Part shown: positions 31,778-48,672 of the stretch, piece by piece
How positions within the stretch are numbered: position 1 is the first letter of the stretch
Layout: the number at the start of each line of letters is the position of its first letter
Source: an uncultured Caulobacterales bacterium
GTDB taxonomy: Bacteria > Pseudomonadota > Alphaproteobacteria > Caulobacterales > Caulobacteraceae
Assembly: GCA_903900155.1 (NCBI GenBank)
Contig: CAIUMD010000076.1
Coordinates: 62,001-126,000 of the forward strand
Reading direction: 5' to 3'
Length of the DNA stretch: 64,000 bases
Made by a program: the position numbers and the translations under genes
Notes under the pieces: generated by a model
What the model saw: only the letters and a program-made list of their open reading frames with translations
What the model was told of the DNA's origin: nothing
The model's database searches: none

Positions 31778-31792
31778 GAACGAATGAGGAAC
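31778..31792. promoter_or_regulatory. LexA (SOS) box upstream of imuA
   Basis: GAACGAATGAGGAAC fits the alphaproteobacterial LexA box GTTC-N7-GTTC read on the opposite strand. It is 30 bases before the imuA ATG and 33 bases before the divergent start at 31745. Confidence 0.85.
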
Positions 31793-31821: not shown

Positions 31822-32583
31822 ATGCCGTCGAGTCTCTCCCCTTCCGCCTTCGAGGCCTTACGCGCCGAGATCGAGCGGATCGAGGCCAACGGCCGCCCAC
31901 GCAAGGGCGTGCTGCCGTTCGGTGTGGACACCGTGGATCGCCAGCTGCCCGGCGGAGGCCTGGTCCTCGGGGCCCTCCATGAAGTGGCCGGCGGCGGCGA
32001 TGGGGCGGTCGATGGCGCCGCCTCGGCCCTGTTCGCCGCGGGGGTCGCGGCCCGCACGCGGGGCAAGGTGCTCTGGTGTGTCACGCGCACGGACCTCTTC
32101 GCCCCGGCGCTGGCGCAGGTCGGCCTTTCGCCCGACCGCCTCGTCTACTTCGAGGCCGGCGACGAAAAGTCGGTGCTGGCGACCTTCGAGGAAGGCCTGC
32201 GCCACGGCGGTCTGGGCGCGGTGGTCGGCGAGGTGTCGCGGCTCTCCATGACCGCCTCGCGGCGCCTCCAGCTCTGCGCCGAGGAGACCGGCACCCTGGC
32301 GATCGCCGTGCGGCGATGGCGCCGGCAGGCCGAGGCCGCCGATTTTGGACAACCGACGGCGGCCAATACGCGATGGCGGATCACCGCCATGCCGTCGACG
32401 CCTCTGCCGGCGGCGGGCGTTGGCCGGGCGCGATGGATGGTCGAGCTCCTCCGCTGCAAGGCGGGCGAACCTGCTGATTTCGAACTGGAAGCTTGTGATG
32501 AGACGGGTCGTCTCGCTTTACCTGCCGACCTGGCCGACCGATCGACGACAGCGCCAGCTTGGGCGCGCCGCGCCGCCGGCTGA
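31822..32583 (+). CDS. imuA: ImuA, SOS mutagenesis accessory protein
   Basis: 253 residues, RecA/SulA-like fold: FGVDTVDRQLPGGGLVLGALHEVAG (a degenerate P-loop region), GKVLWCVTRTDLFAPALAQVGLSP, and the C-terminal WMVELLRCKAGEPADFELE typical of ImuA. With ImuB it links the sliding clamp and DnaE2 for error-prone translesion synthesis. A LexA box is just upstream. Its 3' end overlaps imuB by 86 bases in another frame. Confidence 0.93.
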   Translation: MPSSLSPSAFEALRAEIERIEANGRPRKGVLPFGVDTVDRQLPGGGLVLGALHEVAGGGDGAVDGAASALFAAGVAARTRGKVLWCVTRTDLFAPALAQVGLSPDRLVYFEAGDEKSVLATFEEGLRHGGLGAVVGEVSRLSMTASRRLQLCAEETGTLAIAVRRWRRQAEAADFGQPTAANTRWRITAMPSTPLPAAGVGRARWMVELLRCKAGEPADFELEACDETGRLALPADLADRSTTAPAWARRAAG

Positions 32584-34021
32584 GACGCCAGTCGCCTTGG
32601 TCGGGCGGGAGGGCCGCCGTAAGGTCGTGCTGGCGGCGAACGCCGCCGCCCTGGCCCAGCGCGTGCGGCCAGGCCTGCCTGCGGCCGAGGCCCGCGCCCA
32701 TTGCGCCAAACTGATCGTCGAGGACGCCGATCCGGCGGGCGACTTGGCCCACCTGGATCGGCTCGCGGTCTGGGCGCTTCGGCGCTATTCGCCCATCGTC
32801 GCCGCCGACCCGCCGGTCGGTCTGGTTCTCGACGTCACCGGCGCCGCGCACCTCTTCGGCGGCGAAGAGGCCTTGCTCGGCGACATGGTCGCGCGGCTGG
32901 CGGCGACTGGCGTCGCCGCCCGCGCCGCCATGGCCGGAACCTGGGGCGCCGCGCACGCCCTGGCCCGCTACGTCGCCAAACCCCTGCTTGTCGTCACCAC
33001 CGAGCAATCGGGCCGCGCCGTCGCTCACCTGCCGGTCCGCGCCCTCCGATTGGCGGACGCCACCGTCGTCGGGCTGGGCCAGGTCGGCATCGACAGCATC
33101 GCCGAGCTGGAAGCCAAGCCCCGCGCGCCCCTGGCGCTGCGTTTCGGGCCGGAGCTGACCCGCCGTCTCGATCACGCCTATGGGCGCCAAGCCGAACTCA
33201 TCGAGCCCGTGGAGGCCCCCGAGCTGATTCAAGTTCGGCGCGCCTTCGCCGAACCAGTCGGCGCCCCCGAGACCCTGGCCCGCTATACCCTGAAGCTGGT
33301 CGAGCAACTGTGCATGGCGCTGGAGGCCGACGGCCTAGGCGCCCGCAAGCTGGACCTGCGCTTCCACCGCGTCGACAACCGCATCGAGGCGATCCGGGTC
33401 GGCACCGCCAAGCCGGTGCGCGATATCAAGCGCCTGACCCGCCTCCTCTGCGACAAGCTGGAGGCGGTCGATCCGGGTTTCGGCGTCGAGGCCATGGTGC
33501 TGGCCGCGCCCCTGGCCGAGCCCTTGACGCCGAGGGTGGTCGCCAACGACCTGACCGAGACGCCAGTCCCGGACGTCACCGATCTGATCGACACCTTGGC
33601 CAACCGCTCGGGCGGACACCGCCTCTACCGCGCCGCGCCGGCGCAGAGCGATGTGCCCGAGCGGTCGGTGCGCAAGATCGAGCCGACCGCGCCCGAGACG
33701 GGCGACGGCTGGCCGCAGCGCTGGCCTCGGCCCAGCCGTCTGCTCACCCGGCCCGAGCCGATCGAGGCGGTGGCGCTGTTGCCCGACCAGCCGCCGGTCA
33801 CCTTCACCTGGCGGGGCGTCCGACGTCGGGTGCGCCGCGCCGACGGCCCTGAGCGGATCTTCGGGGAGTGGTGGCGCCGCGACGGCGAGCTCGACGCGGT
33901 GCGCGACTATTTCCAGCTCGAGGACGACGCCGGCAAGCGCTTCTGGGTGTTCCGGCGGGGCGACGGCGAGCGCGCCGCGACGGGCGACCTGAGTTGGTGG
34001 ATGCACGGGCTGTTCGGCTAG
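32498..34021 (+). CDS. imuB: ImuB, Y-family-like polymerase-related mutasome protein
   Basis: 507 residues from ATG 32498. The Y-family fold is recognisable (RRVVSLYLPTWPTDRRQRQ, VGLVLDVTGAAHLFGGEEALL, GLGQVGIDSIAELEAKPRAPLALRFG) but the first catalytic acidic motif is replaced (SLYLPTW), as in all ImuB proteins, so it is a scaffold that recruits clamp and DnaE2. Its stop overlaps that of the convergent PIN gene. dnaE2, normally next in the cassette, lies 3.8 kb away. Confidence 0.94.
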   Translation: MRRVVSLYLPTWPTDRRQRQLGRAAPPAETPVALVGREGRRKVVLAANAAALAQRVRPGLPAAEARAHCAKLIVEDADPAGDLAHLDRLAVWALRRYSPIVAADPPVGLVLDVTGAAHLFGGEEALLGDMVARLAATGVAARAAMAGTWGAAHALARYVAKPLLVVTTEQSGRAVAHLPVRALRLADATVVGLGQVGIDSIAELEAKPRAPLALRFGPELTRRLDHAYGRQAELIEPVEAPELIQVRRAFAEPVGAPETLARYTLKLVEQLCMALEADGLGARKLDLRFHRVDNRIEAIRVGTAKPVRDIKRLTRLLCDKLEAVDPGFGVEAMVLAAPLAEPLTPRVVANDLTETPVPDVTDLIDTLANRSGGHRLYRAAPAQSDVPERSVRKIEPTAPETGDGWPQRWPRPSRLLTRPEPIEAVALLPDQPPVTFTWRGVRRRVRRADGPERIFGEWWRRDGELDAVRDYFQLEDDAGKRFWVFRRGDGERAATGDLSWWMHGLFG

Positions 34022-34638
34022 GTCCTCAGGGCGCGCCGTACACTGATCGGAAGGCTGTTGCATCCTTCGGCCCGCTCGCGGCCAACGCAGGCGACCACTT
34101 CAGCTGCGTGGTGCGCCGCTACGCGCATCCGCGCCTCGACCAACGCCCCGTAAAGCGCATGGCCGAGGTCAGCTTCGCCGAGGCCGCGGCGAACGTCGGA
34201 GGAGAACAGCAGATCCACCGTGGAAGCGACCATCAAACTCGGAAACCGTACTGCCGCCAGCGACGTGGCTTTGCGCTCGTCGATGTAGGCCACCGCCCCG
34301 GCCCGTTGGGCATAGACCAACGTCGCCGCCTCACCGTCATCCAAGGTCTGGGCCGCATCGCCAGCCACCAAGCTCAGGAACAAGTCTTCATCCTGTGGGT
34401 CGAGGTCGACAACCTGCAGCAGGCCGAGATGCAACCACGCGGCCACTTCATCAGCAGCCTGCCGCCCCTTGTCGCGGCCCCGCTCCAACTCGGAGAGCGC
34501 GGTCCGCGTGATTTCAAGGGTTCCGTTGTAGAGCCCGAGAATCCTGTCCGCGCAGCCGGTGGCGGCGAGATTGATCCAGACGCTCGCATCGGCGACGGCC
34601 ATGCGCGCCTCAGAGCATCGGACGGGAGGACGCGTCAT
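34018..34638 (-). CDS. PIN-domain nuclease-like protein (last gene of QueC-like operon)
   Basis: 206 residues from 34638 (overlapping the upstream gene by 29 bases) or 194 from ATG 34602 (8 bases past its stop). PIN/DUF3368-like features: VADASVWINLAATG (Asp17), TALSELERG (Glu), LDDGEAATLVYAQRAGAVAYIDERKATSLA (Glu/Asp). It probably cleaves RNA or DNA. Its placement after an Xre-ImmA/IrrE gene suggests an effector controlled by that protein. Confidence 0.8.
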   Translation of the reverse strand: MTRPPVRCSEARMAVADASVWINLAATGCADRILGLYNGTLEITRTALSELERGRDKGRQAADEVAAWLHLGLLQVVDLDPQDEDLFLSLVAGDAAQTLDDGEAATLVYAQRAGAVAYIDERKATSLAAVRFPSLMVASTVDLLFSSDVRRGLGEADLGHALYGALVEARMRVAAHHAAEVVACVGRERAEGCNSLPISVRRALRT

Positions 34639-35779
34639 CGACCTCCTCGTCTTCGAAAGCGTCGATCAGCTCGCGGATTTCGACGCGATCGAGCTGCAGC
34701 AGCCCGGCCAATTGGCCTTCGCTGAGGAGGTTCTTCTTCCAGGCCTCGCGCGCCAGCATGCCGAGCCGCAGCGACACCGGTCGGGCGGCGTCCGCCTTTC
34801 GGGCGTCGACGCTCCAGGAGTCGCCGAGGACTTGGCGCGCCTGGTCGTTGGTGATGCCGCCGTTGTGCTCGAACCAGTCCCAGGTTCCGGCCTTGGTCAG
34901 GCCAAGCTCTTCCAGGCGGCGGACCATGGCTTCGCGCGCCACGCCGAAGGCATGGGCGAGCACGATGACGTGGCGCCGGGTCAAGGAGGAGCTGCCAGCG
35001 GTGACATCGCGGAACATCGCCATGACGGCGCGGGCCGGAGTGAGGAACGCTCGGGCGAAGGCGTTCGCGTAGCGCTCTTCCCGACTGGCTTCGGGCGAGC
35101 CGTCGTAGAGGGCGTCGGGCGCCCGCCGGGTCGAGACCAGGTGGCCAAGCTCGTGGCCGCCGGTCTGGGCGCGGCGCTCGCGCGGGTGGGCGGCATTCAG
35201 GAGAATGCAGGGACCGGCGGCCTCATCGTAGGCATACAGGCCAGAGATCTTGGCCGGCAGGCGGCGAACGAACACCCTGACGCCGAGTTGAAGTTCGAGC
35301 AGCGAGACGATGTCGTGCACCGGCGCCTGGCCGATGCCGAGCCATTGGCGCAGCTCCGCCGCATCGTGCTCCGCCTGCAGGACCACGTCTCCGGGCATGA
35401 GCGGGCGTTCGGGCGGATCGTTTCGGGCGCGCCGCACGCCAAGGAGATCCTCGAGTTCCAGCTCTGCCTGGACGAGGGTGGTCAGGAGGGCGACGGCGCC
35501 TTCGACGCCGGCGTCCTGCTCGCCCATCCGCCGGAAGCGGGGCTTGAGGTCGACCTGCACCGCTTCACGGCGCAGCAGCGCGTTCAGCGAGACGCCGTAC
35601 AGCGAGGCCAGCCGCTGGAGTTCATCCAGCTTGGCCCGACGCTGGCCCTGCTCGATGGCGACCACGGTGGTGCGCGCCACCTCGAGGGCGGCGGCGGCGG
35701 CGGCCTGGGTGATCTTCGCCGCCTCCCGCGCGATCCGCAGCCGCTCGCCGACTTCCTGAGGGGTGAGCGCTTCGCTCAT
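34610..35779 (-). CDS. Xre-ImmA/IrrE regulator-metallopeptidase
   Basis: 389 residues. Residues 8-65 are an Xre HTH (LRIAREAAKITQAAAAAALEVARTTVVAIEQGQRRAKLDEL). Residues 130-280 are an ImmA/IrrE zinc peptidase with HELGH at 209-213 and a later EERYANAFARAFLTP helix supplying the third ligand. Such fusions act as repressors and/or cut a repressor or antitoxin on a stress signal. Start overlaps the QueC-like stop (ATGA). Palindromes upstream of the operon are candidate binding sites. Confidence 0.9.
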   Translation of the reverse strand: MSEALTPQEVGERLRIAREAAKITQAAAAAALEVARTTVVAIEQGQRRAKLDELQRLASLYGVSLNALLRREAVQVDLKPRFRRMGEQDAGVEGAVALLTTLVQAELELEDLLGVRRARNDPPERPLMPGDVVLQAEHDAAELRQWLGIGQAPVHDIVSLLELQLGVRVFVRRLPAKISGLYAYDEAAGPCILLNAAHPRERRAQTGGHELGHLVSTRRAPDALYDGSPEASREERYANAFARAFLTPARAVMAMFRDVTAGSSSLTRRHVIVLAHAFGVAREAMVRRLEELGLTKAGTWDWFEHNGGITNDQARQVLGDSWSVDARKADAARPVSLRLGMLAREAWKKNLLSEGQLAGLLQLDRVEIRELIDAFEDEEVDDASSRPML

Positions 35780-37152
35780 GGCTGGACGGCCGAAAGGCCC
35801 CGCACGAAGGAGTCTGGCGCGAGGGCGTCAAGGAACAGACGCCATTCGGCGGCGTGGCGGACTAGCAGCGAACGCAACCGCGCTTCGATCTCGATCGGAT
35901 CCTCGTGCAGGACCTCTGCAGTTTCGCGCGCGATCCGCCGGACCGCGCGAGCCGCGGTCGGGGCGGTCGCGAGGTCAGCCAGGTGGTCCATGTGCAGGAC
36001 GCCGGCGATGGCGTGCTCGCGCATGGAGCCGGTAATGCCGGTGAAGCCAGCCGCCACGCCTTCTTCGAAGGTCGGGGCGGACAGGTTTTCCCAGACATAG
36101 GCGTCGACCGGCTCCGACAGGCCGGCGCTGAACATGCTCATGCGCCGGAGCATGCAGGCGGCGCAGATGCCGCACTGCCGGCGTCGGCCATCGACGGAGG
36201 CGTGGCGCGATTGTTGCCAGCAGGAACGGGTGTCGTCCCAGGTCGGAGGATTGGCCAACCTCGCCGCCTCGGCGAGGGTCTCGCCCTTGGTGGACCACAG
36301 GCGCGGATATTCGTAGCGCGCAGTTGAACCCACCAGGGCCTCGAAGAGGCGCTCGACGCGAGCGGTGAAGAGCGGATGGACCCGGTAGTCCGGATAGATT
36401 TGGCCGCTGACGGCCATCATCGGGCCGAAGGCGCCTTGGCCGCTCTCGGTGACGACAATCCGGTCGACGCCCGCGATCTGCGCCGCCACCCCGGTGACGA
36501 CCGCGAACTTGAACCCTCGGGACCGGGCCGAGGATTCTTTCCGCATCGGCACCTGGACCTTGTAGGGCACGAGGGTGAAGGCCGCGCGGCGACGCTCACG
36601 CTGCGGATCGTCCACGCCCACTGATCCCAGGCGCACGCGCACTAGGGCCGAACCGCCAATCGCTTGGGCGGTGATGGCGTGGACGGCGCGCGAATCCAGC
36701 CCGTCGCTGTAGGGCATGATGGCCTTGGCCCCCGCCGGCAATTCAAGGCTCAGCGGCCGGCTGGTCTCGGCGCTGCGCTGGCGCGCCACGAAGCTGAAAG
36801 TCCAGCTATCGCCGGTCAGGAAGATCAGGGCGTCTTCCAAGGCTCCCTTGACCGCGGGCGATGACCAGAGGGCGACGTCGTGGACCGCCACTCGCACGTC
36901 GAAGCTGCGCGACCAAGAAACGGTCGAGCGCGCCTTGGCCGCATCGCAGTACTCCGCCGCCGCCGCGACGACGAGCAAATCGAACAGCGCAGGGCGCCAT
37001 TTGGAGAAAAAGTAGGTTTCGAGACCTTCCGTCGACAGCCGGATAGCGTCGCCGAGGGCGGCAAGCTCGGCGTCTTCCCGGACCGGCGCTCCGGGCTCGA
37101 GAACGTCGACGACCATGGATTCGTCGACCAGGCGGGTGGCGAGGGCGGTCAC
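35776..37152 (-). CDS. QueC-like PP-loop enzyme (7-cyano-7-deazaguanine synthase-related)
   Basis: 458 residues, about twice the size of housekeeping QueC (230). The PP-loop is [13 protein letters not shown] (SDGLDS at 149-154). The Zn site is complete: Cys311 in TRSCWQQ and C-x2-C-x2-C at 327/330/333 ([12 protein letters not shown]). [12 protein letters not shown] is also QueC-like. Residues 1-130 and the helical C-terminus are extra. Relatives are found in defence systems: QatC of Qat and Cap9 of type IV CBASS. No queDEF genes are nearby, so queuosine synthesis is unlikely. Coupled on both sides by 4-base overlaps. Confidence 0.87.
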
Positions 37153-37715
37153 AAGCTTACTCCTTCATCGAGACCGGACCGGTCGACAGACGAAGTCAGA
37201 TCACGGGCCGCGGCGCCGGCGACGAGGGCCGACGCAAGGCTTCTCAGATCGGCGGCCGCCATCGAGTCGGTCAGGCGAGCGCGGATGTCCGCGGCCTTAC
37301 CCTGCGAGGCCTCGCGCCGGTAGTGTTCCTCGACCTGGCGCTGACCTCGGTCAGCGCGCTCGGCGATGGTCGCGGCCGCCGCTTCCTCGACAGCGGCGGC
37401 GCCGCGATAGCCGTCGCGCAGCACGTCCATCGCGTTGTCCGCCAGCAGGGCCTCCATCGGGTTGCTGGCTTGCGAGCGCAACCGGGCCACCTCCTGCTTG
37501 GCGACTTCCGGCAGGAGCATGCCGCGCTCGTCATCGCCGAGGGCGGCGCGCATCTGGCGAAGGAACGGCTGACCGATCTCCCGCCAGTCGGCCGCCAGCG
37601 CGGCCGGCACGGCCTCGGCAACTTCGGCGGCGCTATGGGCGGCATTGCCGGCGAGCTTCGCCAGCGCCTTCCACTTCACGCTCATCTTTAGGGTCTTGTA
37701 GGGGCCGTCGCTCAT
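37149..37715 (-). CDS. Helical protein of unknown function, first gene of QueC-like operon
   Basis: 188 residues from ATG 37715, chosen because GAGG lies 9 bases upstream; ATG 37724 is directly adjacent to the same site and less likely. Almost entirely helical ([35 protein letters not shown], then a charged C-terminal helix with [15 protein letters not shown]). No signal peptide. Stop overlaps the QueC-like start. By position it could be the substrate or partner of the QueC-like enzyme, as QatB is for QatC, but I see no sequence proof. Confidence 0.75.
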
Positions 37716-37729
37716 GCCAGGCATCCTCG

Positions 37730-37799
37730 AATGTCAGGATAGATGCCCGAACCTCCCGACAATGTCAAATCGGGCGGGGCCGACGGCTGACATTGTCAG
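37730..37799. promoter_or_regulatory. TGTCA-type palindromic operators of the QueC-like operon
   Basis: Two palindromes: CTGACA-T-TGTCAG (37787-37799, perfect) and GACA-A-TGTC (37758-37766), plus a half-site AATGTCAGG at 37730. They lie within 85 bases upstream of the first gene of the minus-strand operon and between it and the LexA box of dnaE2. The Xre-ImmA protein encoded in the operon is the obvious candidate binder. Confidence 0.65.
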
Positions 37800-37817: not shown

Positions 37818-37832
37818 GAACAAATAAAGAAC
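37818..37832. promoter_or_regulatory. LexA (SOS) box upstream of dnaE2
   Basis: GAACAAATAAAGAAC, i.e. GTTC-N7-GTTC on the other strand, 14 bases before the dnaE2 ATG. This explains how dnaE2 stays SOS-controlled although detached from imuAB. Confidence 0.9.
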
Positions 37833-37846
37833 ATTCTGGACACCCG

Positions 37847-40800
37847 ATGCGGTATGCTGAGCTGCAAGCAACCTCGCACTTCTCCTTCCTGCGCGGGGCC
37901 TCCTCCTGTGAGGAGCTGTTCAGCCAGGCCAACCTCTGCGGCATTGAGGCCGTGGCCATCGTCGACCGCAACTCCTTGGCCGGGATCGTGCGTGCCCACG
38001 AGGCGGCCAAGGTCACGAATGTCCGGCTGATCGTCGGCTGCCGTCTCGACCTCGCCGACGGCGCCAGCATCCTCGTCTACCCGACTGATCGGTCTGCCTA
38101 TGCGCGGCTGTGCCGTCTGCTCAGTCTGGGCAAACGCAGGGCCGGCAAGGCGAAATGCCATCTCGAATGGGCCGATCTCCCGGACTATGCCGAAGGGCTG
38201 ACCGCCATTCTCGTGCCCGACGAGCCGGACGAGGTCTGCGCCCAGCGTCTGCGCAAGCTGAAGGCGACGTTTACCGTGGGCGCCTACCTGGCCTTGAGCC
38301 TGCGGCGTCGGCCCGGCGACGCGCTGCGACTGCACGATCTATCGAACCTAGCTGTCCAGGCGGGCGTGCTCACCGTCGTCACCAACGACGTCCTCTTCCA
38401 CCATCCGGACCGCCGCATCCTGCAGGACGTGGTCACCGCCGTTCGTCACGGCTGCACGATCGACGAACTGGGCTTTAGACGGGAACGTCATGCCGACCGC
38501 CACTTGAAACCGGCCGAGGAAATGCACCGGCTGTTCTCCAAATATCCCGAGGCCTTGGCGCGGACGCTTGAGATCGCCGATCGCTGCCGGTTCAGCCTGG
38601 ATGAGCTGAAGTACCAGTACCCGGACGAGGTCTCCGAACCGGGCAAGACACCTCAGGACACCCTCGCCGAACTGACCTGGGAAGGCGCAGCGAGGCGTTA
38701 CCCCGAAGGCCTGCCCGACAAGGTCGTGCGCAGCCTCAAACACGAACTGCGGCTGATCGAAACGCTGGGCTACGCGCCCTACTTCCTGACCGTGAACTCC
38801 ATCGTCGGCTTCGCCCGCAGCCGCGACATCCTCTGCCAAGGCCGCGGCTCGGCCGCCAATTCGGCCGTCTGCTACGTGCTCGGCATCACCTCCATCGACC
38901 CCGAGCGTAATGACCTGCTCTTCGAGCGCTTCGTCTCCGAGGAGCGGCGCGAGCCGCCCGACATTGACGTCGATTTCGAGCACGAGCGGCGAGAGATCGT
39001 CATGCAGTGGATCTACGACACCTACGGCCGCGATCGCTCGGCGCTCTGCTCGACGGTGATCCGCTATCGCGGCCGGGGCGCGGTCCGCGACGTCGGCAAG
39101 GCGCTCGGCCTCTCGGATGATCTGATCAAGATGTTATCGGGCCAGATCTGGTCGTGGTCGGAAGGCGGCGTTGAGGAAAAGCACGCGACCGAACTGAATC
39201 TCAACCTAGGCGACCGGCGCCTGAGTTTGGCGCTGGACCTCGCGCGCCAGCTGCACGGCACGCCGCGGCACCTGAGCCAGCACCCGGGCGGCTTCGTCCT
39301 GACTCGCGATCGGCTGGACGAGCTGGTTCCCATCGAGCCGGCGGCGATGAAGGACCGCCAGGTGATCGAATGGGACAAGGACGACATCGACGCGCTCAAA
39401 TTCATGAAGGTCGACGTCCTGGCGCTCGGGATGCTGACCTGCATGAAGCGCGGCCTCGACCTCCTGAAGAACCACAAGGGGATCGACCTCGACCTGGCCA
39501 CCATCCCGGCCGAAGATCCGCGCACCTATGCGATGATCCGCAAGGCCGACACCCTCGGCGTCTTCCAGATCGAGAGTCGGGCGCAGATGGCGATGCTGCC
39601 CCGCATCAAACCCAGAACCTTCTACGACCTGGTGATTGAGGTGGCGATCGTCCGCCCCGGACCGATCCAGGGGGACATGGTTCACCCCTACTTGCGCCGG
39701 CGGGAGGGCAAGGAGCCGGTGGAGTATCCCAAACCCGAGCTCGAGGCGGTGCTCGGCAAGACGCTTGGCGTGCCCTTGTTCCAGGAACAGGCCATGCGGG
39801 TCGCCATCGAGTGCGCCGGCTTCACCGCCGGCGAGGCCGACCAGCTGCGCAAGTCGATGGCGACCTTCAAGTTCACCGGCGGGGTCAGCCATTTCCGGGA
39901 CAAGCTGATCGGCGGCATGGTCGAGCGCGGCTACACTCAGGAGTTCGCCGAGCGCACCTTCAGCCAGTTGGAAGGCTTCGGCTCCTACGGTTTCCCGGAG
40001 AGCCATGCTGCCTCCTTCGCGTTGATCGCCTACGCCTCCTCGTGGCTCAAGTGCTGGCACCCCGACGTCTTCTGCGCCGCGCTGCTTAACGCCCAGCCGA
40101 CGGGCTTCTACGCCCCGGCGCAGATCGTCCGCGACGCCCGAGAACACGGCGTCGAGGTGCGGCCAGTCTGCGCCAACGCCAGCCGCTGGGACTGCACCCT
40201 CGAGCCCCTCGCGAACAGCGACCGCCATGCGGTGCGCCTCGGCCTCAGGATGGTGCGCGGCCTTTCCAACGCGGACGCCGCGGCCGTCGTCGCGGCACGC
40301 GGCGAGCAGCCATTCGCCTCGATCGACGATGTCTGGCGCCGAGCCGGCGTGCCAGCGGCCAGCCTGGTCAAGATCGCCGAGGCCGACGGCTTCCGCGAGA
40401 GCCTCGGCCACGCACGGCGCGAGGCGCTGTGGGCGATCAAGGCGCTTCGGGATGAACCCCTGCCGCTGTTCGCGGCGGCCGCGGCGCGCGAACAGCAGCT
40501 CGTCCCGGAGGTTGCCGAACCCGACGTCGTCCTGAAGGCGATGACCGGCGGCCGGGAGGTGGTGGAGGACTACGGTCATGTCGGCCTGAGCCTGCGCGAC
40601 CACCCCCTAGCCTTTGTCCGCAAGGACCTCACCAAGGAGCGTTACGTGACCTGCGCGGAAGCCATGGCGGCAAAGGACGGCCGCTTCCTGAAGGCCGCCG
40701 GCCTGGTGCTCGTCCGGCAGATGCCCGGGTCAGCCAAGGGCGTGATGTTCATCACCGTCGAGGACGAGACCGGCACAGCCAACCTCGTGGTCTGGCCCAA

Positions 40801-41110
40801 GATGTACGAGAAGTACCGACGAGTGATCCTGACCGCTTCCATGCTCGGGATCGACGGCCGCATCCAGCGAGAGGGCGACGTCGTCCACATGGTCGCCTGG
40901 AAGGTGATTGACCTCTCCGAGCTGCTCGCCAGCGTCGGCGGACGGGAGGCGCCCTTCCCCCTGCCCCACGGCCGGGGGGACGAATTCGCCCGCGGGCCCA
41001 GCGCGCCCGACACGCGCGAGGCCGCGCCGAAAGGCATGGCGGCGCGGGACATCTTCGTCCCCGACCTGCACATCGACACGCTCAAGCAGAAGACGCGGGA
41101 CTTCCGGTGA
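37847..41110 (+). CDS. dnaE2: DnaE2/ImuC, error-prone DNA polymerase III alpha-type
   Basis: 1087 residues from ATG 37847 ([28 protein letters not shown]). It has the N-terminal PHP domain, then the C-family polymerase core ([33 protein letters not shown] with the catalytic acidic pair, [27 protein letters not shown]), a helix-hairpin-helix region and a C-terminal OB-fold ([18 protein letters not shown]). With ImuA/ImuB it performs mutagenic lesion bypass. Length is normal for the family. Confidence 0.97.
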
Positions 41111-41111
41111 C

Positions 41112-41780
41112 CTAGCGGCTGCGCTGCCGTTCCCGCGAACGCTGGGAATCCGGCTGGGCCTGAGACCGACCGAGGTCGACGGGCCGAACATGCGCTCCTT
41201 GCTCGAGCCAGGACGCCAGCCGCTGGCGCGCAGCGGTGAGTATGCGCTCCTGCGCGGGACGATCGCCGACCCGGGCGCGCACGACCGCCTCGACCACCCG
41301 CAGGTTGTTCCGGGCGGACGCTGCGTTTTCGCGCGCCTCGCGGTCCGTCTGTTCCGGCCGCTCCTCGGCGGAGCGGTTGTTCTTGCGGGCCAGCGCCGCC
41401 TGCCGCTTTTCGAGCTCCTGTCGGTCCCGCTCGCTGGCTTGGTAGCCTCGCACCTCCATGCCCAGAGCTGACGCGGTCAGCCACGCTTCGCGCCGGAAAT
41501 CCGTGCCGCCATGCACGACGACGACGGTCCAGCCGCGGTGCTGCGCCACCGCCGCCATGTCGCGGATTGCGTTCGGGTCAGACCGGGGCGTCACCAGCCG
41601 AGCGCCGAGATCCCGGAAGGCGGCGGTCTGGATGCGGGCGTCGGCGTAGAAGCCGAGGCCTGGGCCGCCGCGCTCGTCCAGAAAATAACGGCGGCGAAGC
41701 GGCTCGGGCACATCGCCCTTATTCATCGAGCGCCCACGGCCCTCGCTGTCGATCTGATTGCGGTCGATCTCATCGGGCAT
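41112..41780 (-). CDS. LPD7-domain conjugation-associated protein
   Basis: 222 residues. The N-terminal half (RRRYFLDERGGPGLGFYADARIQTAAFRDLGARLVTPRSDPNAIRDMAAVAQHRGWTVVVVHGG and WLTASALGMEVRGYQASERD) is the large-polyvalent-protein-associated LPD7 domain, normally part of relaxases such as TraI/MobA proteins. Here it is free-standing with a charged helical tail. It overlaps the end of the coupling protein gene by 11 bases and is the last gene of the transfer operon; a role in DNA processing is inferred. Confidence 0.85.
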   Translation of the reverse strand: MPDEIDRNQIDSEGRGRSMNKGDVPEPLRRRYFLDERGGPGLGFYADARIQTAAFRDLGARLVTPRSDPNAIRDMAAVAQHRGWTVVVVHGGTDFRREAWLTASALGMEVRGYQASERDRQELEKRQAALARKNNRSAEERPEQTDREARENAASARNNLRVVEAVVRARVGDRPAQERILTAARQRLASWLEQGAHVRPVDLGRSQAQPDSQRSRERQRSR

Positions 41781-43641
41781 GATCTGCCTCCTGTCGTATT
41801 ACGGACCCGTCGATGAAGCGCTCCATCCAGCCCTCGACCTCCGCGTCGGTCGCGCCTTCCGGCGGCAAGGGCTCGAACCCCGCCGCCGCCAAGGCCGGCG
41901 CGACCAGGCTCACGTCAAGTTCGCCCTGCCGCCTCGTGGCCGCAGCCGAGCGTGGCGACGCCGAAGCTGCGGCGCTGACGCCAATGGCCGGATGAGCGCG
42001 GACGGTCGGCGGCGCGATCACCCGCGCCTTGAACGCCGTCTCGCGCCAGTATTGGATCTTGCGGCCGCGCACGGGCGGCATCCCGGCCCGGAGCAAGATG
42101 AGTTGGCCCGGGTCCATCTGGATTAGTTCCTGCGGCATCATCAGAGCGCGGCGCTGGTCGGACTCGGTGGTGCTGCGATTGCCCTTCCCCAGCAGGGTCG
42201 GCCGGCTGGTGGATCGGCCGGCGTAGGTCCAGAAGCCCAGCCGCTCCGAGAGGTCCTGGGCGACTTTCAACTCCTTGGGCGCGAAAGCGACCTCCAGGCC
42301 GCAGTTGGCCATGATTTCATCGGTGAGATCGGGGCCGTATTCGGCGCGGAGCTGAGCCGGGCTCTGAAGAACCGGCAACAACCGCAACCCATAGCCAGCG
42401 ACGTAGGAGAAGCCGTGAGCGATGACCGCCGCGTGCCCAAGCCGCGCGAATTCGTCCATGACCATGAGCACCTGCACCGCGTGCCGATCTGCGGTCGGCC
42501 GCTCACGCGTGTTAAGGTCAACCAACTGCTGCAGCAGCAGATTGTACAAGGGCGCGACCCGAGCCAGGTTGTCCGGCGAGACCCCGAGGTAGAGCGAGAT
42601 TCGCCGCTCCCGGAGGTCCCGCAGATCGAAGTCGCTGGCGTCCGTCGCCGCACAGACGCGCGGGTTTAGCCAGAGGTTCATCCTCGCGGTGATGGTCTGC
42701 TTGATCGACGCGAAGGTGTTCTCGGACGCCGAACAGAAGTCCGACAGGGCGCTGACGCACCCATAGGACAGCGGGCGCCCAGCGTCGGCCCGGGCCTTGA
42801 TGGTCTCGGGCAGACGGCTCCTGGAATCTCCGTGCGTGAGCTCGCGGTAGATGGCGCCCAGGCTGAACGGCAGCTCCGGCGTCTCGGCGACATAGGCGCC
42901 GACGCCGATCAGACCGGTCCGCGCCGCTTCCGCCCAGAACGGGTCGCCATGCTGCGGCGGTGGGAACAACATCACGGCGAGCTTCTGAAGCTCGTCGAGG
43001 ACGGCGATGGAGTCCGCCCGGTCGATATGGCCAAGCGGATTGAACCGTGCCGTTCGGCCCTCCGGATCGAGCGGATCGAACAGCACCACGTCCTGGCCAT
43101 GGGTGGCGCGAAAGCCGGCGCTCGCCTCCCAGTTCTCGCGCTTGACGTCGAGGACCACGACGGAATCCGGCCAGGTCAGAAGGTTTGGAATGACCACGCC
43201 GACGCCCTTGCCGCTGCGGGTCGGGGCGTGGAGCATGACGTGCTCGGAGCCGCCGAACACGAGCAGCCGGCCGCCCTTGCGACCAACGACGACGCCTTGT
43301 TGGGCGCGCAGGCCGGCGCTGACCAGTTCGGCCTCAGACGCCCAGCGCGCGGCGCCATGCAGCGGCGGACGTCGCCTCTTCATGATGCCGACGGTCGCGA
43401 CGCCGGCGCCGCCAAGCGCCGCCAGGGCGCCGATGCCAAGCCAGCGCTGCACCAGCGGGTCGGCGCGGAAATACCAGAACCAGGCCGGAACCTGGGCCGG
43501 GTCGATGTCGGCCGACAGGCGCTTGAGTCCGGCAAGCGCGATGACGGCCGCTAAGGTCGTCAGCCCGGCGATGACCCCGGCCGCCAGGGTTCCGACATAG
43601 GCGGCCTTAAGCGGCCAGGGCGCGCTTGCGAAGCGGCTCAT
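41770..43641 (-). CDS. virD4: Type IV coupling protein VirD4/TraG
   Basis: 623 residues. Two N-terminal membrane segments (AAYVGTLAAGVIAGLTTLAAVIALAG; WLGIGALAALGGAGVATVGIM), then the ATPase: Walker A HAPTRSGKGVGVVIPNLL, Walker B-like VLMVMDEFARLGH, and the conserved SDFCSASENTFASI. It brings the relaxosome to the T4SS and powers DNA export at the inner membrane. It overlaps virB11 by 35 bases. It is distinct from the broken TraG at 5.5-6.1 kb. Confidence 0.96.
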   Translation of the reverse strand: MSRFASAPWPLKAAYVGTLAAGVIAGLTTLAAVIALAGLKRLSADIDPAQVPAWFWYFRADPLVQRWLGIGALAALGGAGVATVGIMKRRRPPLHGAARWASEAELVSAGLRAQQGVVVGRKGGRLLVFGGSEHVMLHAPTRSGKGVGVVIPNLLTWPDSVVVLDVKRENWEASAGFRATHGQDVVLFDPLDPEGRTARFNPLGHIDRADSIAVLDELQKLAVMLFPPPQHGDPFWAEAARTGLIGVGAYVAETPELPFSLGAIYRELTHGDSRSRLPETIKARADAGRPLSYGCVSALSDFCSASENTFASIKQTITARMNLWLNPRVCAATDASDFDLRDLRERRISLYLGVSPDNLARVAPLYNLLLQQLVDLNTRERPTADRHAVQVLMVMDEFARLGHAAVIAHGFSYVAGYGLRLLPVLQSPAQLRAEYGPDLTDEIMANCGLEVAFAPKELKVAQDLSERLGFWTYAGRSTSRPTLLGKGNRSTTESDQRRALMMPQELIQMDPGQLILLRAGMPPVRGRKIQYWRETAFKARVIAPPTVRAHPAIGVSAAASASPRSAAATRRQGELDVSLVAPALAAAGFEPLPPEGATDAEVEGWMERFIDGSVIRQEADHAR

Positions 43642-44608
43642 ACCAGACCTCCGTCATGCGAAACCGGCCATCGACCCGGCGCAGCTGCACCACCACGTCG
43701 ACCAGCATCTGCAGCAGGGCGCGGATGTCGTCGCGCGCTAGGTCTCGCCCGCCGTCCGACTCCTTCACCAGCAGGGTCAACTGCTCGAAGGCCAGGGTGG
43801 CGCTATCGGCGTGGATGGTGGTGATCGAGCCTGGATGGCCGGTGTTGACGTTGCGCAGATAAAAAAAGGCGGTTCCGTCGCGAAGCTCCTGCAGCAGGAT
43901 GCGGTCGGGGCGCATGCGGAGCGCACTCTCAAGCAGCTCCTTGGCGCCGACCTTGGCGAGGCCCTGCCCGTCCTTGGCGTAGAGCAGATGGACGGCGTTG
44001 CGATGCGGCACGATGAGCTCGCGGGCGTCCTCGATGGTCAAGAGCCGCTCGCCATCGGGGATCAAACGGACCAGGCCCTTGGCGAAGGTGGTCTTGCCCG
44101 ACCCCGTCGCGCCGGAGATCAGGACGTTGCGCCGGCTTTGCACCGCCAGCCGGAAGAAGGCTGGCCAGTCGCCGGCGTCCCGCAGGGCCAAGAGCCGGTT
44201 CTCGGCTGGAGACAGGTCGTTGGTTGCAAGGGCGACATCATCGAACAACCCATTGCGGGCGAAGGCGTCGAGATCGAACGTGGCTTCTGACGGCTTGCGC
44301 AGGGTCAGCGACAGCTGCTCGGCGGCAGGCGGAATGACGATCTGGCAGCGTTCCCCGCGCGGCAGCACCGTCGAGCAGATCGGTGTATCGGGGGCGACAT
44401 CCTGGGACGTGAAGGCCGCCGCTGCCCTGGCCAGGGTGGCGAGCCAGCCCTCGGTCAACTCCGGGGCGGCGCGCCACTCCCAGCCGCCGGCCCGCTCAAT
44501 GCCCAGCTCGCCTGGTCGGTTGACCACCAGTTCGGTGACGCCCTCCGGCTCAAGCAGGGCCTGGAGCGGCGCGAGGTAATGCTCGAGGACGGCGGTGTCG
44601 TGGGCCAT
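43607..44608 (-). CDS. virB11: T4SS ATPase VirB11
   Basis: 333 residues. The N-terminal domain (LEPEGVTELVVNRPGELGIER) precedes the ATPase core with Walker A ISGATGSGKTTFAKGL, Asp box TIEDARELIVPHRNAVHL, Walker B RPDRILLQELRDG and His box GHPGSITTIHADSA. It forms a hexameric ring at the cytoplasmic face of the secretion channel. Confidence 0.97.
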   Translation of the reverse strand: MAHDTAVLEHYLAPLQALLEPEGVTELVVNRPGELGIERAGGWEWRAAPELTEGWLATLARAAAAFTSQDVAPDTPICSTVLPRGERCQIVIPPAAEQLSLTLRKPSEATFDLDAFARNGLFDDVALATNDLSPAENRLLALRDAGDWPAFFRLAVQSRRNVLISGATGSGKTTFAKGLVRLIPDGERLLTIEDARELIVPHRNAVHLLYAKDGQGLAKVGAKELLESALRMRPDRILLQELRDGTAFFYLRNVNTGHPGSITTIHADSATLAFEQLTLLVKESDGGRDLARDDIRALLQMLVDVVVQLRRVDGRFRMTEVWYEPLRKRALAA

Positions 44609-44609
44609 G

Positions 44610-45752
44610 TCACCGCGATCTCAGGCCATAGACGCCGGAGAAATCGAAGTCCTGGGCGACGAAGATCGAGACTTCCGAACCTTGAGCCTTGCGGAGCGAA
44701 GGCGGGATGCTGATTGAGTTCTGGACGGCAATGCCGGCGGCGTCGGACGGCAGCCGGGTCACATTGGACCCAGTGTTGGGCCCGGCGACCGCGTAAGCCG
44801 CGTCATCGACGATGCTGAGCAGCAGGGCGCCTCCGAACCGGTCCCAGAAGTGGGTGTCGATGTCACCGTCGAAGCCCGCGCGGCCGAGCGGGTCGGCGGC
44901 CGGCGAGGCCAACGCGATCGCGACCCCGGCCGGCGTGACGGCGCGCGTCCAGAGCACGAACAGGCGGCGCTGGCCCTGCTTCAGGGTCGAGCGGTATTCG
45001 CCAAGCACCTTGGTGCCCTTCTCCAGCAGCACCACGGCGCCATTGTCCGAGAGAACATCGCGGGGGATCAGGCAGCTGACATAGCCCGGCGTGGTGGAGT
45101 CCATCGCCGTCTGCAGAAGGCACGGGATGTTGGCGCCGGCGACGATCAGGAAGTTGCGGTCGGGCAGCCTCGCCGCCCTGGCCTGTCCGATCGCCGAAGC
45201 GCGCCGCAGCTGGTCGAGCTCGGTCCCCTCCGCGCGGCCTTGAGCTTCCGCCGCGATCAGCGTCGGCGCGACGGGCCCCGCGCCGCCGCCGGTCCGCGTG
45301 TAGGCCAGGATCGGCGCGCCGCGTATGGCGCCCAGCTCAGCCTGACGACGCGCAACCGCGTCGGCCGCCGTGCCGGCTCCGGCCGGCGTGGTCCCGGCCC
45401 CCGGACGGATCGCCGGGACCGTCTCGCCGGACCCGGCGGACGCCAGCACGGGGGCGCCGGCCCCCGGCGCCGCCAGGGTCGGGGCGGGATCCTTGGCGGC
45501 CGGCTCGAACGGCACCACCTGGCGGGCCGGCTCATCGCGTTCGGGTTCGGGCTTTGGCCGGTCGTGGCCCCAGCCGGCGGCTACAAACACGCCGCAGCCG
45601 GCGACGAGGGCGGCGAGGACGACGCCCTTGCCCGCCCAGCCGGGTCCAAGCCGGCCGGCGATCGGCGAGATCGATCGTTCGAACGCGGGCGCCGAGGGGG
45701 CGTCGCGTTCCACGCGCGGGGCGTCCGGGTTGAGGTCGGTGGCGTCGGTCAT
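44610..45752 (-). CDS. virB10: T4SS core protein VirB10
   Basis: 380 residues: cytoplasmic N-terminus, one membrane segment (GKGVVLAALVAGCGVFVAAGW, about 42-62), a proline/alanine-rich periplasmic linker, and a C-terminal beta domain (GANIPCLLQTAMDSTTPGYVSCLIPRDV, VLLEKGTKVLGEY, GVYGLR). It spans both membranes and transduces ATPase energy to the outer-membrane pore. Confidence 0.96.
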   Translation of the reverse strand: MTDATDLNPDAPRVERDAPSAPAFERSISPIAGRLGPGWAGKGVVLAALVAGCGVFVAAGWGHDRPKPEPERDEPARQVVPFEPAAKDPAPTLAAPGAGAPVLASAGSGETVPAIRPGAGTTPAGAGTAADAVARRQAELGAIRGAPILAYTRTGGGAGPVAPTLIAAEAQGRAEGTELDQLRRASAIGQARAARLPDRNFLIVAGANIPCLLQTAMDSTTPGYVSCLIPRDVLSDNGAVVLLEKGTKVLGEYRSTLKQGQRRLFVLWTRAVTPAGVAIALASPAADPLGRAGFDGDIDTHFWDRFGGALLLSIVDDAAYAVAGPNTGSNVTRLPSDAAGIAVQNSISIPPSLRKAQGSEVSIFVAQDFDFSGVYGLRSR

Positions 45753-46603
45753 GGCCGCGGGCCTCCCTGGTCGGTTCGCTGGACGTCGGGGGCGGCCGTC
45801 CCCGTGGCGGGGTTGACGCCATAGGGCTCGAACGCCTGGTTGTAGATGCAGAGCACGTCCTTGCCGCGCCGCAGGCGCAGCTGCCGGGCGACGGCGTGGA
45901 TGACGACGAATTCCCCGCGCACGTCGAAGGGGACCAGGCTCTCGGTCCCACTCGACTCCACTTGGTAGATCGTGGGGACCGGCTGATTGGCCGGGAAGCG
46001 CAGCACGGTGAAGCGACCGTTGTCGGAAACCTCCGACGGCTGCAGGGCCGTCGCGCCCTGGACGCCGTAGTTCAGGTTGCGCTTGCCCTCGACCACGGCC
46101 CGCTCGAGCTTCAGCTGCAGGATCCGCTGATCCAGCGCCGCGGCCTGGGCGCTCAGGGCGGCCGCGGCGGCGGCGCGCTCATCCTGGGGATAGCGGAAGC
46201 GCAGGCCGAACACCGTGTCCGCCGTCCCCCGCGCCGATGACCCGGCGCGTGTCGAGAGTTCGAAGGTGTAGTTGCGGGTCTCGCCGCCGGCGCGCGCGGT
46301 CGTGACGATCAGGTTGGTCGGCGCCCTGGGCGCCTTGGGCTTGACGAAGAGGATATTCTTCTCGGCCGCCACGTCCCAGCCGGTGGCGTCGCCGACGGCC
46401 ACATGCAGGATCGTCTCGTCGGGCCCGAGAAGGATTTGGGTGGCTGTGCGGAAGACGCCGGTGACGTGGACCACCGCCCATGGATCATAGTCGATGGTCT
46501 TGATCCGCGGATCGGAAGGTCCGGCCTTCGGCGTGTCGAGGGCGACGGCCGGCGACGCCGCGGCGATCGCCAAAGCCCCGAGCATGACGGCGGCGGGCCT
46601 CAT
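45749..46603 (-). CDS. virB9: T4SS outer-membrane complex protein VirB9
   Basis: 284 residues from ATG 46603 (coupled ATGA to virB8). Signal peptide (VMLGALAIAAASPAVA), then the VirB9/CagX pattern: DPRIKTIDYDPWAVVHVTG, NILFVKPKAPRAPTNLIVTT, RNYTFEL, and C-terminal LNYGVQGATALQPSEVSDNGRFTVLRFPANQPVPTIY. Forms the outer-membrane core ring with VirB7 and VirB10. Confidence 0.96.
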   Translation of the reverse strand: MRPAAVMLGALAIAAASPAVALDTPKAGPSDPRIKTIDYDPWAVVHVTGVFRTATQILLGPDETILHVAVGDATGWDVAAEKNILFVKPKAPRAPTNLIVTTARAGGETRNYTFELSTRAGSSARGTADTVFGLRFRYPQDERAAAAAALSAQAAALDQRILQLKLERAVVEGKRNLNYGVQGATALQPSEVSDNGRFTVLRFPANQPVPTIYQVESSGTESLVPFDVRGEFVVIHAVARQLRLRRGKDVLCIYNQAFEPYGVNPATGTAAPDVQRTDQGGPRP

Positions 46604-47274
46604 CGGACCACCTCCGGGTCGGCCCGGTAGCTGGTGACCTGGAAGCCGAGCGGATTGCGAAGCCGATCGGCCTCGCCCATCGGCGCCTTGGTGTAGGCGT
46701 AGGCGACGGTGGCGATCCAATCGCTCTCGGTGACCTGCGGCCCTTGGCGGACGATCCGATGGAAGCGGACGTTGGCGACGCCGTCGGAGACGAAGCTCAC
46801 CGCGCGGATGTCGATCTGCGCTTCCGCCGTTTGGCCAAACACGACCTGCGAGCTCGACGGATTGGCGGGCCGGTAGAGATCGGCCCAGCGCTGCTGTTCG
46901 GCGGGCGTCGACATGATCGAGACCTGGCGGAAGTTGGCCTCGGCGGCCGGCGCCAGCCAACCCTCGCGGGCGCGCACATACTGCGCCAGGAAGTGCTTGG
47001 TCACCGCCTCGTCATAGGTGAGCGGCTTCTCGCTCCTCAGGGCGGTCATCACGTCAACAGCGCCTGTGGCGCGATCCACCCGGACCACGAAGGGCTCGAC
47101 ACTTTTCAGCGGGGCCAGGACCGCCACGGCGCCGACGGCGACTGTCGCGAGCACGCAGGCGAAGCCGGCGACGCCCCACGCCAACCGACGTGATCGGACC
47201 TCGGCCCGCATGCGGTCCGCGTCCCAGCTCTTCGCCTCGGCGAAGTAGGTCCTGAGGTCTCGTTCGGCGTTCAT
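46600..47274 (-). CDS. virB8: T4SS assembly protein VirB8
   Basis: 224 residues: short cytoplasmic tail, one membrane segment (LAWGVAGFACVLATVAVGAVAVLAPL), and the periplasmic NTF2-like domain (VEPFVVRVDRATGAVDVMTAL, YDEAVTKHFLAQYVRAREGW, NPLGFQVTSYRADPEV). Nucleates T4SS assembly in the inner membrane. Confidence 0.96.
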   Translation of the reverse strand: MNAERDLRTYFAEAKSWDADRMRAEVRSRRLAWGVAGFACVLATVAVGAVAVLAPLKSVEPFVVRVDRATGAVDVMTALRSEKPLTYDEAVTKHFLAQYVRAREGWLAPAAEANFRQVSIMSTPAEQQRWADLYRPANPSSSQVVFGQTAEAQIDIRAVSFVSDGVANVRFHRIVRQGPQVTESDWIATVAYAYTKAPMGEADRLRNPLGFQVTSYRADPEVVR

Positions 47275-47507
47275 GCGCAGCTCCCGAAGGCGCTGGGCCG
47301 CTCGATGGCGGAAAGCGGTTTCGGCGTGGTCTCCACGGTCCCGGCCGGCGCCTTCCGGTCGCCCTCAGGCGTCGGCGCCAGGACGCTGCCGTAAGGATTG
47401 CCGGTACGGAGGTGCTTGCCATCGCACACGGGAAGCTTGCCGCCGCCGCTGCTGGCGCAGGCCGCCAAGCTGAGCAATGGCACGAGGATCAGAAGCATTG
47501 GACGCAT
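47271..47507 (-). CDS. virB7: VirB7-like T4SS lipoprotein
   Basis: 78 residues with a lipoprotein signal (MRPMLLILVPLLSLAACASSGG; lipobox LAAC). Small size, position between virB6 and virB8 and stop-start overlaps on both sides identify it as the VirB7 equivalent, which anchors VirB9 in the outer membrane. The C-terminal part has two further cysteines (PVCDGK, GSCA) that could disulfide-link to VirB9. Confidence 0.8.
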   Translation of the reverse strand: MRPMLLILVPLLSLAACASSGGGKLPVCDGKHLRTGNPYGSVLAPTPEGDRKAPAGTVETTPKPLSAIERPSAFGSCA

Positions 47508-48442: not shown

Positions 48443-48447
48443 GGCGG

Positions 48448-48672
48448 TCAGAACCCCTTGCGGTAGGCGTCCATCCGCGCGTCGCGGCGGGCGGAGGCGA
48501 CGGCGGCCTGGGCGTTGACGCATTCCTGGCCCCGGTGAGCGCCGGACTTGCAGTCGGCGACAACCTGCGCGGCTTCATCAGCATGGGCCTCGAAGTAGCT
48601 GGTGCTGCGCGGCTCCGGGGAGCAGGCCGCGAGGGTTAGCAGCGCCAGGGCGGAGACGAGCCGAGCGTTCAT
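48448..48672 (-). CDS. eexN: EexN-family entry-exclusion lipoprotein
   Basis: 74 residues with a lipobox (LALLTLAAC) and the EexN pattern SYFEAHADEAAQVVADCKSGAHRGQECVNAQAAVASARRD. Proteins of this family block redundant conjugation into cells already holding the element. It lies between virB5 and virB6, its usual place, overlapping the virB5 stop. Confidence 0.88.
   Translation of the reverse strand: MNARLVSALALLTLAACSPEPRSTSYFEAHADEAAQVVADCKSGAHRGQECVNAQAAVASARRDARMDAYRKGF

What the first reader, a model, noticed from the sequence alone, without database searches (positions are those of the whole stretch)
37730..37799. Clustered TGTCA palindromes as a private operator for the QueC-like operon
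CTGACA-T-TGTCAG, GACA-A-TGTC and a half-site are packed into 70 bases upstream of the operon. This is the layout of Xre-type autoregulation with cooperative sites.
Basis: partly seen in the sequence, partly recalled or inferred. Interest (0 to 1): 0.55.

Follow-up and report, generated by a model that had tools for sequence, protein, structure and literature searches.

The report
Conserved operator of a defence-like operon
A short repeated palindrome sits on the promoter region of a four-gene, defence-like operon and recurs at the same spacing in front of related operons from many bacteria, so it is very probably the operon's own on/off switch, worked by a repressor the operon encodes.

Summary
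TGTCA starts at 37732, 37763 and 37794, exactly 31 bp apart: a perfect palindrome (O1, 37788-37798), a near-perfect one (O2, 37757-37767) and a half-site (O3). They lie upstream of a minus-strand operon A-B-C-D: unknown helical protein starting MSDGP; QueC/QatC-like protein; Xre-ImmA fusion; PIN nuclease. Of 66 related operons (below 70% identity in A, window included), 57 carry TGACA-N-TGTCA (at most one mismatch) in the 130 bp before A, against 15 of 5281 control windows. Half-sites recur 30-31 bp away, three helical turns. O2's left arm is also a -35-like TTGACA. The Xre recognition helix varies little. Best reading: autorepression by C, relieved through its ImmA domain, as in CapH/CapP. 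Binding and trigger are untested. A-B resembles the QatB-QatC pair and C-D a RosmerTA pair; I found no description of the combination in the searches made. The window's cassette sits between SOS-type imuAB and dnaE2, with LexA-like boxes before imuA and dnaE2; one Brevundimonas locus repeats this context.

The parts
37788..37798 (.). O1: perfect palindrome TGACATTGTCA (13-bp core 37787-37799), distal site
   Evidence: a full upstream palindrome is also present in the close relatives L003 and L035-L039
37757..37767 (.). O2: palindrome CGACAATGTCA (operon strand TGACATTGTCG), the site conserved in the family; its left arm is the -35-like TTGACA
37732..37736 (-). O3: half-site TGACA on the operon strand, 31 bp downstream of the O2 left arm, just before the ribosome-binding site
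37763..37768 (-). TTGACA, -35-like hexamer overlapping O2 (the -10 in this window is weak)
   Evidence: one search found no sigma-70-like promoter at its threshold
37725..37728 (-). GAGG, probable Shine-Dalgarno sequence of gene A
   Evidence: GGAG at about the same place in most relatives
37149..37715 (-). gene A: 188 aa, predicted all-helical, unknown family, conserved N-terminus MSDGP (start corrected from 37724)
35776..37152 (-). gene B: 458 aa QueC-family, QatC-like
34610..35779 (-). gene C: 389 aa Xre HTH fused to ImmA/IrrE-type peptidase (HELGH), presumed operator-binding autorepressor and antitoxin
34018..34638 (-). gene D: 206 aa PIN-domain nuclease, presumed toxin/effector; overlaps the end of C
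37818..37832 (.). GAAC-N7-GAAC, alphaproteobacterial LexA-type box (motif recalled, not from a call) of the divergent dnaE2; not part of the operator

Best explanation
The cluster is the autoregulatory operator of the A-B-C-D operon. The Xre domain of C binds TTGACA-N-TGTCA at O2 (over the -35) and same-face sites 31 bp away (O3 near the predicted start site, O1 upstream), and shuts the promoter off cooperatively. The fused ImmA-type peptidase, presumably activated by DNA damage or ssDNA during phage attack, inactivates C; this derepresses the operon and frees the PIN nuclease D, while B acts on A as QatC is proposed to act on QatB. Shown here: the sites, their conservation, spacing and association with the cassette. 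Inferred: binding by C, repression, cooperativity, the trigger, the roles of A, B and D.
For: 57 of 66 representative operons carry TGACANTGTCA (at most 1 mismatch) within 130 bp of A, against 15 of 5281 control windows; four decoy palindromes reach that level in 0 of 66. TGACA-to-TGACA spacing is 30 or 31 in 51 pairs and TGTCA-to-TGTCA in 16, every other spacing up to 60 at most once. Conservation upstream of A is concentrated in the operator and ribosome-binding columns (the rows were anchored on the best site, which favours those columns). C has an HTH and an M78 peptidase domain. HTH residues R36 and T38 are identical in 46 of 46 aligned C proteins, T37 in 98%; a minority of loci have P at 37. 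Seven genomes (window's included) with C at E of 1e-60 or less in searches with C all have B and D beside it. Exact palindrome plus half-site occurs once in the host genome. Two more distant operons, L010 and L011, in which A begins MRDD and C is about 45% identical, still have such sites.
Against: No binding or expression data. L009 has the cassette but no recognisable site; sites are degenerate in some others, for example L006, L033, L056, L097 and G300. The window's -10 is weak, and over the 58 of 66 representatives scored the -10 signal is modest (16 with 5 of 6 matches, none with 6, against 5.8 and 0.6 in shuffles). Searching by pattern alone finds 3 of 4 genome hits and 9 of 9 viral stretches without the cassette. 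An 11-bp palindrome is compact for a canonical Xre dimer (general knowledge). The ImmA trigger is by analogy only.
Confidence: 0.78

Rival explanations
1. The conserved TTGACA is only a strong -35 promoter element; the palindromes are incidental.
For: TTGACA at O2 is nearly invariant, and a TATAAT-like hexamer 16-19 nt downstream is mildly enriched.
Against: The right arm TGTCAG is nearly as conserved as the left (T95 G98 T98 C97 A80 G84 per cent of 61 anchored rows), and extra half-sites stand at 30-31 bp; a -35 box explains neither.
Confidence: 0.06
2. The sites bind a host regulator, or LexA, rather than C.
For: The palindrome also occurs elsewhere in the host genome (34 at up to 1 mismatch against 8 for the reversed control); a LexA-type box lies 19 bp away.
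Against: The LexA-type box is a different motif (GAAC-N7-GAAC) and belongs to dnaE2. The same operator precedes cassettes in records labelled Alpha-, Beta- and Gammaproteobacteria, Geomonas and Acidobacteria, where no single host regulator is expected.
Confidence: 0.1
3. The sites act on the divergent dnaE2 (SOS mutagenesis polymerase), not on the operon.
For: O1 is 19 bp from the LexA-type box and 48 bp from the dnaE2 start codon; L040 has the same arrangement.
Against: O1-type upstream palindromes also occur in L003 and L035-L039, where no dnaE2 was found in the fetched stretches.
Confidence: 0.04

Closest known systems
CapH + CapP (HTH repressor and ssDNA-activated ImmA-type protease of CBASS, Bub and other immune operons)
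   Same: HTH and ImmA-type peptidase activities next to a defence operon; PADLOC capP (3.5e-14) and capH (1.6e-5) models match C; ssDNA-triggered cleavage of the repressor is described (PMC13373217, passages).
   Different: Here both domains are one polypeptide, encoded by the third gene of the operon with a PIN nuclease gene overlapping it; no damage response tested.
RosmerTA (RmrA Xre-ImmA antitoxin with varied RmrT toxins)
   Same: C matches RmrA models (best 5.1e-29); association of ImmA antitoxins with PIN-like domains is reported (PMC10440598, passages).
   Different: Two extra genes, A and QatC-like B, precede the pair; D matches PDC-S70 models and no RmrT model at the thresholds used.
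qatABCD, QatB-QatC pair
   Same: B matches QatC (8.7e-26; solved QatC chains at 5e-32 with the family profile) and shares several QatC motifs; A is a small protein encoded just upstream with a conserved N-terminus, as QatB has MGTS.
   Different: No QatA or QatD in the cassette; A starts MS/TDGP, not MGTS, with no sequence or fold match to QatB seen; the NCBIfam QatC cut-off is not reached (101 against 280 bits).
CapK/CapS narrow-palindrome operators
   Same: Half-sites separated by one base pair, bound cooperatively, in an immune-operon regulator's promoter (PMC13373217, passages).
   Different: Different protein family and half-site (TTAA).

Membership tests
Autoregulatory Xre-type operator | Inverted-repeat sites upstream of an operon encoding an HTH protein | tested here: met
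Autoregulatory Xre-type operator | Conserved upstream of homologous operons | tested here: met
   57 of 66 representatives
Autoregulatory Xre-type operator | The cognate protein binds the sites and represses | not testable with these tools
   needs footprint and reporter assays
qatABCD | QueC-family QatC | tested here: inconclusive
   PADLOC QatC 8.7e-26, but NCBIfam QatC 101 bits, below its 280 cut-off
qatABCD | QatA NTPase and QatD TatD nuclease in the operon | tested here: not met
   the cassette genes are A, QatC-like, Xre-ImmA and PIN
qatABCD | QatB with N-terminal MGTS glycine motif | tested here: not met
   A starts MSDGP 96, MTDGP 7, MRDGI 2 of 105 (starts were placed by an M[STR]DG rule, so see also alignments)
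qatABCD | QatB fold | tested here: inconclusive
   no QatB in the 50 rows shown for the A model by Foldseek or by VIA-align 2
RosmerTA | Xre-ImmA antitoxin RmrA | tested here: met
   14 RmrA models matched, best 5.1e-29; Pfam M78 and HTH_3
RosmerTA | Adjacent toxin neutralised by RmrA | not testable with these tools
   D is a predicted PIN fold overlapping C; toxicity not tested
CapH/CapP regulation | Separate HTH repressor and ssDNA-activated peptidase genes | tested here: not met
   one fused protein
CapH/CapP regulation | Peptidase Zn motif HExxH | tested here: met
   H209, E210, H213 invariant in 46 of 46
PIN/VapC-type nuclease (gene D) | PIN fold with conserved acidic residues | tested here: met
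   Foldseek probability 1.00 to VapC structures though best E only 1.5e-3; D17 and D101 invariant, E50 and D120 in at least 90% of 43; Pfam PIN reached by 6 of 43 members, not by the window's D
LexA (SOS) box | Alphaproteobacterial GAAC-N7-GAAC within O1-O3 | tested here: not met
   in the window such boxes lie at 30439, 31778, 37818 and 43477, none within O1-O3

The most novel reading that the evidence does not exclude
The operator marks a not-yet-catalogued, mobile immune cassette that combines two known modules: a QatBC-like pair (B modifying the N-terminus of A at an MS/TDGP motif instead of glycine) and a Rosmer-like Xre-ImmA/PIN toxin pair, both held silent by one DNA-damage-cleavable autorepressor acting on 31-bp-phased sites. 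In the window lineage it is wired next to SOS mutagenesis genes.
Probability: 0.35. Interest if true: 0.75.

Novelty: new variant of a known kind. Interest (0 to 1): 0.52.

Why it matters
How toxic immune operons are kept off until needed is an active question. Here one compact, strongly conserved operator offers a clean reporter system for a fused Xre-ImmA regulator, and it points to a widespread four-gene cassette in which a QueC-family protein is tied to a PIN nuclease. The conserved MS/TDGP N-terminus makes it directly testable whether QueC-type protein modification extends beyond N-terminal glycine.

Tried and rejected
Rejected: promoter-only reading; LexA or a host regulator as binder; operator for dnaE2; an RNA hairpin (one-base loop; reasoned only, not folded).

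Weak or uninformative: the palindrome count in the window alone. The Qat controls printed, L012, L014 and L015, show no TGACA/TGTCA upstream of the presumed qatB, but that stretch lies inside the qat operon by the usual gene order, so this is a poor control. Pattern-only searches gave 4 of 299 genomes, one at the cassette, and 9 viral stretches, none with the cassette, by my rough estimate about what a short pattern may give by chance. Operator/recognition-helix covariation: SRPTLVSIE helices go with TTGACTTTGTCAG in L027, L029 and L030 but not in L007 or L028; no conclusion. Fold search of A gave no match with E of 0.001 or less; one search gave middling Z (6.7 at most, to designed helical repeats) and lists no QatB; this does not exclude kinship. 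The A profile found no convincing solved relative (best E 0.33) nor Pfam family. Literature: (QueC, ImmA, defense) returned one paper, unrelated by title; (ImmA, HTH, operator, autoregulation, toxin-antitoxin) one Geobacillus survey, listing only; (four terms) none; (QatC, ImmA) one unrelated paper; (the palindrome string) listed 5 of 6 papers, none about this operon by title. DefenseFinder models and PADLOC system definitions were not available to me; PHROGs was not searched.

Rows dropped and biases: L001 and L002 (the window itself) were left out. Of the 113 loci there, 8 had no A start by the M[STR]DG rule (L010-L015, L064, L084; operator-like sites seen by eye in L010, L011, L064, L084). 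Starts of L024 and L031 were set by hand. L024 (short A) was left out of the 66 representatives. The rule selects for M, D and G, so the N-terminus tally is partly circular for those positions; P5 was not selected for. Nine of 66 fell outside the spacing classes; by eye three of these (L021, L025, L088) have the zero-spacing palindrome TGACATGTCA with a half-site downstream, and L075 has its array further upstream. For the window and a few others one search took the upstream palindrome rather than O2 as reference. Representatives are related by descent and are not independent trials; L008 and L016 are the same locus. First looks scored at most 4 candidates a genome in the rows shown, so C could be missed.

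Full report
Observation. Reading the operon strand (minus), the order is O1 (TGACAATGTCA, 37798-37788), O2 (TTGACATTGTCGG, 37768-37756) and O3 (TGACA, 37736-37732), followed by GAGG (37728-37725) and an ATG at 37715. Successive TGTCA starts are 31 bp apart, about three helical turns, so the sites should face the same side of the DNA. Two GACANTGTC within 70 bp occurred in 0 of 200 simulated windows. The bare palindrome is not rare in the host genome, but an exact palindrome plus spaced half-site occurs once in 4.94 Mb.

The operon. Downstream on the minus strand are A (188 aa, start corrected to 37715), B (458 aa), C (389 aa) and D (206 aa). B matches QatC in PADLOC (8.7e-26), NCBIfam (101 bits, below its cut-off of 280) and solved QatC chains (5e-32 with the family profile). 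By my reading of the alignment the window's B keeps several motifs reported for QatC (PMC13329287, abstract and passages): DxWxxxF, RxRxxxF, ExG, HP and P(x)4TK, with SxGxDS in place of SGGxDS. C is HTH_3 plus Peptidase_M78 with HExxH invariant in 46 of 46. D is a predicted PIN fold (pLDDT 94; Foldseek probability 1.00 to VapC structures). A is a confident all-helical model (pLDDT 91.8) with no convincing relative found.

Conservation test. Homologues were collected by B: 14 of 299 genomes of the order, the window's own included; 89 plasmid records with a match, of which 18 were fetched for this (one further Qat record); and the best 80 of 210 related stretches in species genomes. 113 loci were analysed. 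In 105 a start could be placed upstream of B. In 99 of the 105 the order A-B-C-D is complete; the other six loci are 2.6-6.3 kb stretches in which D, or C and D, were not found. Reduced to 66 representatives below 70% identity in A, window included, 57 have TGACANTGTCA with at most one mismatch in the 130 bp before A (43 exact), against 15 of 5281 windows elsewhere in the same loci; four decoy palindromes reach that level in 0 of 66. TGACA-to-TGACA spacings of 30 or 31 occur 51 times and TGTCA-to-TGTCA 16 times; every other spacing from 6 to 60 occurs at most once. Two layouts dominate: palindrome with a downstream half-site (42 of 66) and palindrome with an upstream half-site (13 of 66); 2 have both, 9 neither by the script. 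The window, L003 and L035-L039 have an additional full upstream palindrome, though O2 or O3 is degenerate in some of them. Outside the sites and the ribosome-binding region the upstream DNA shows little conservation. The clear exception is L009; several others have degenerate sites.

Link to C. Three samples were searched with C: 41, 385 and 398 genomes, overlapping. The seven distinct genomes with C at E of 1e-60 or less, window's included, all have B and D beside C and A upstream. Five have an exact palindrome, G417 a one-mismatch site, and G300 a degenerate site about 30 bp from a half-site (and the window). Three remote Xre-ImmA genes (25-30% identical) have different recognition helices and no exact palindrome in the loci fetched. 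The recognition segment ARTTxVAIExG varies little in the cassette family. This makes C the natural binder but does not prove it.

Promoter. O2's left arm with the preceding T is TTGACA. In the 58 of 66 representatives scored, a TATAAT-like hexamer 16-19 nt further on has 5 of 6 matches in 16 cases against 5.8 in shuffles, and none has 6 against 0.6. If this is the promoter, O2 covers the -35 and O3 lies near the start of transcription, the layout of a repressor site. In the window itself the -10 is weak and the scan found no promoter at its threshold.

Mechanism and relatives. CapH/CapP pairs repress adjacent immune operons until CapP, activated by ssDNA, cleaves CapH (PMC13373217, passages). 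RosmerTA antitoxins (RmrA) are ImmA-type proteins, often with an HTH, paired with varied toxins and also associated with PIN-like domains (PMC10440598, passages). QatC binds QatB, and an N-terminal glycine motif of QatB is essential for defence (PMC13279940, abstract and passages). The cassette looks like a QatBC-like pair plus a Rosmer-like pair in one operon. The QatB comparison is partial: A lacks MGTS and no QatB fold match was seen. By my reading of annotation names, 11 of the 15 annotated plasmid neighbourhoods hold other defence or toxin-antitoxin genes (AbiE, Shedu, Lit, restriction, VapBC or other toxin-antitoxin, reverse transcriptase), consistent with a defence role that has not been tested.

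Context in the window. The cassette lies between imuA/imuB-type genes (31822-34021) and dnaE2 (37847-41110; family matches, those of imuA and imuB below their cut-offs). imuA and dnaE2 each have a GAAC-N7-GAAC box (31778, 37818). In L040, an uncultured Brevundimonas, the cassette sits in the same place and orientation with equivalent boxes. No dnaE2 match was found in the fetched stretches of the other 111 loci, so the operator is not a dnaE2 element.

Verdict. The operator is ordinary in kind but unusually well conserved, and it belongs to a cassette for which I found no description in the searches made.

Noticed in passing
window 31778-31792 and 37818-37832: GAAC-N7-GAAC (alphaproteobacterial LexA-type, recalled motif) boxes upstream of imuA and dnaE2; the imuAB and dnaE2 genes are separated by the four-gene cassette.
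   Followed up: partly
L040 1072-10337: Uncultured Brevundimonas contig with the same cassette between imuAB and dnaE2 in the same orientation.
   Followed up: partly
window 41770-48523: Conjugation-type genes (coupling-protein-like, VirB11/TrbB-like, VirB10-like and others, by eye from the ORF list) beside dnaE2, suggesting an integrative conjugative element.
   Followed up: no
L142 and L145: Viral contigs with TTGACA-N-TGTCAG followed by TATAATGGGTGACA: possibly a phage repressor using a similar operator.
   Followed up: no
window 37713-37724: The ORF listing start of gene A (37724, MPGMSDGP) is probably wrong; conservation and the GAGG site point to the ATG at 37715 (MSDGP).
   Followed up: yes
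L010 and L011: More distant operons whose first protein has MRDDLHKT near its start instead of MSDGP, with a QatC-like protein and Xre-ImmA but no PIN gene found in the short stretch fetched, keep operator-like sites.
   Followed up: partly
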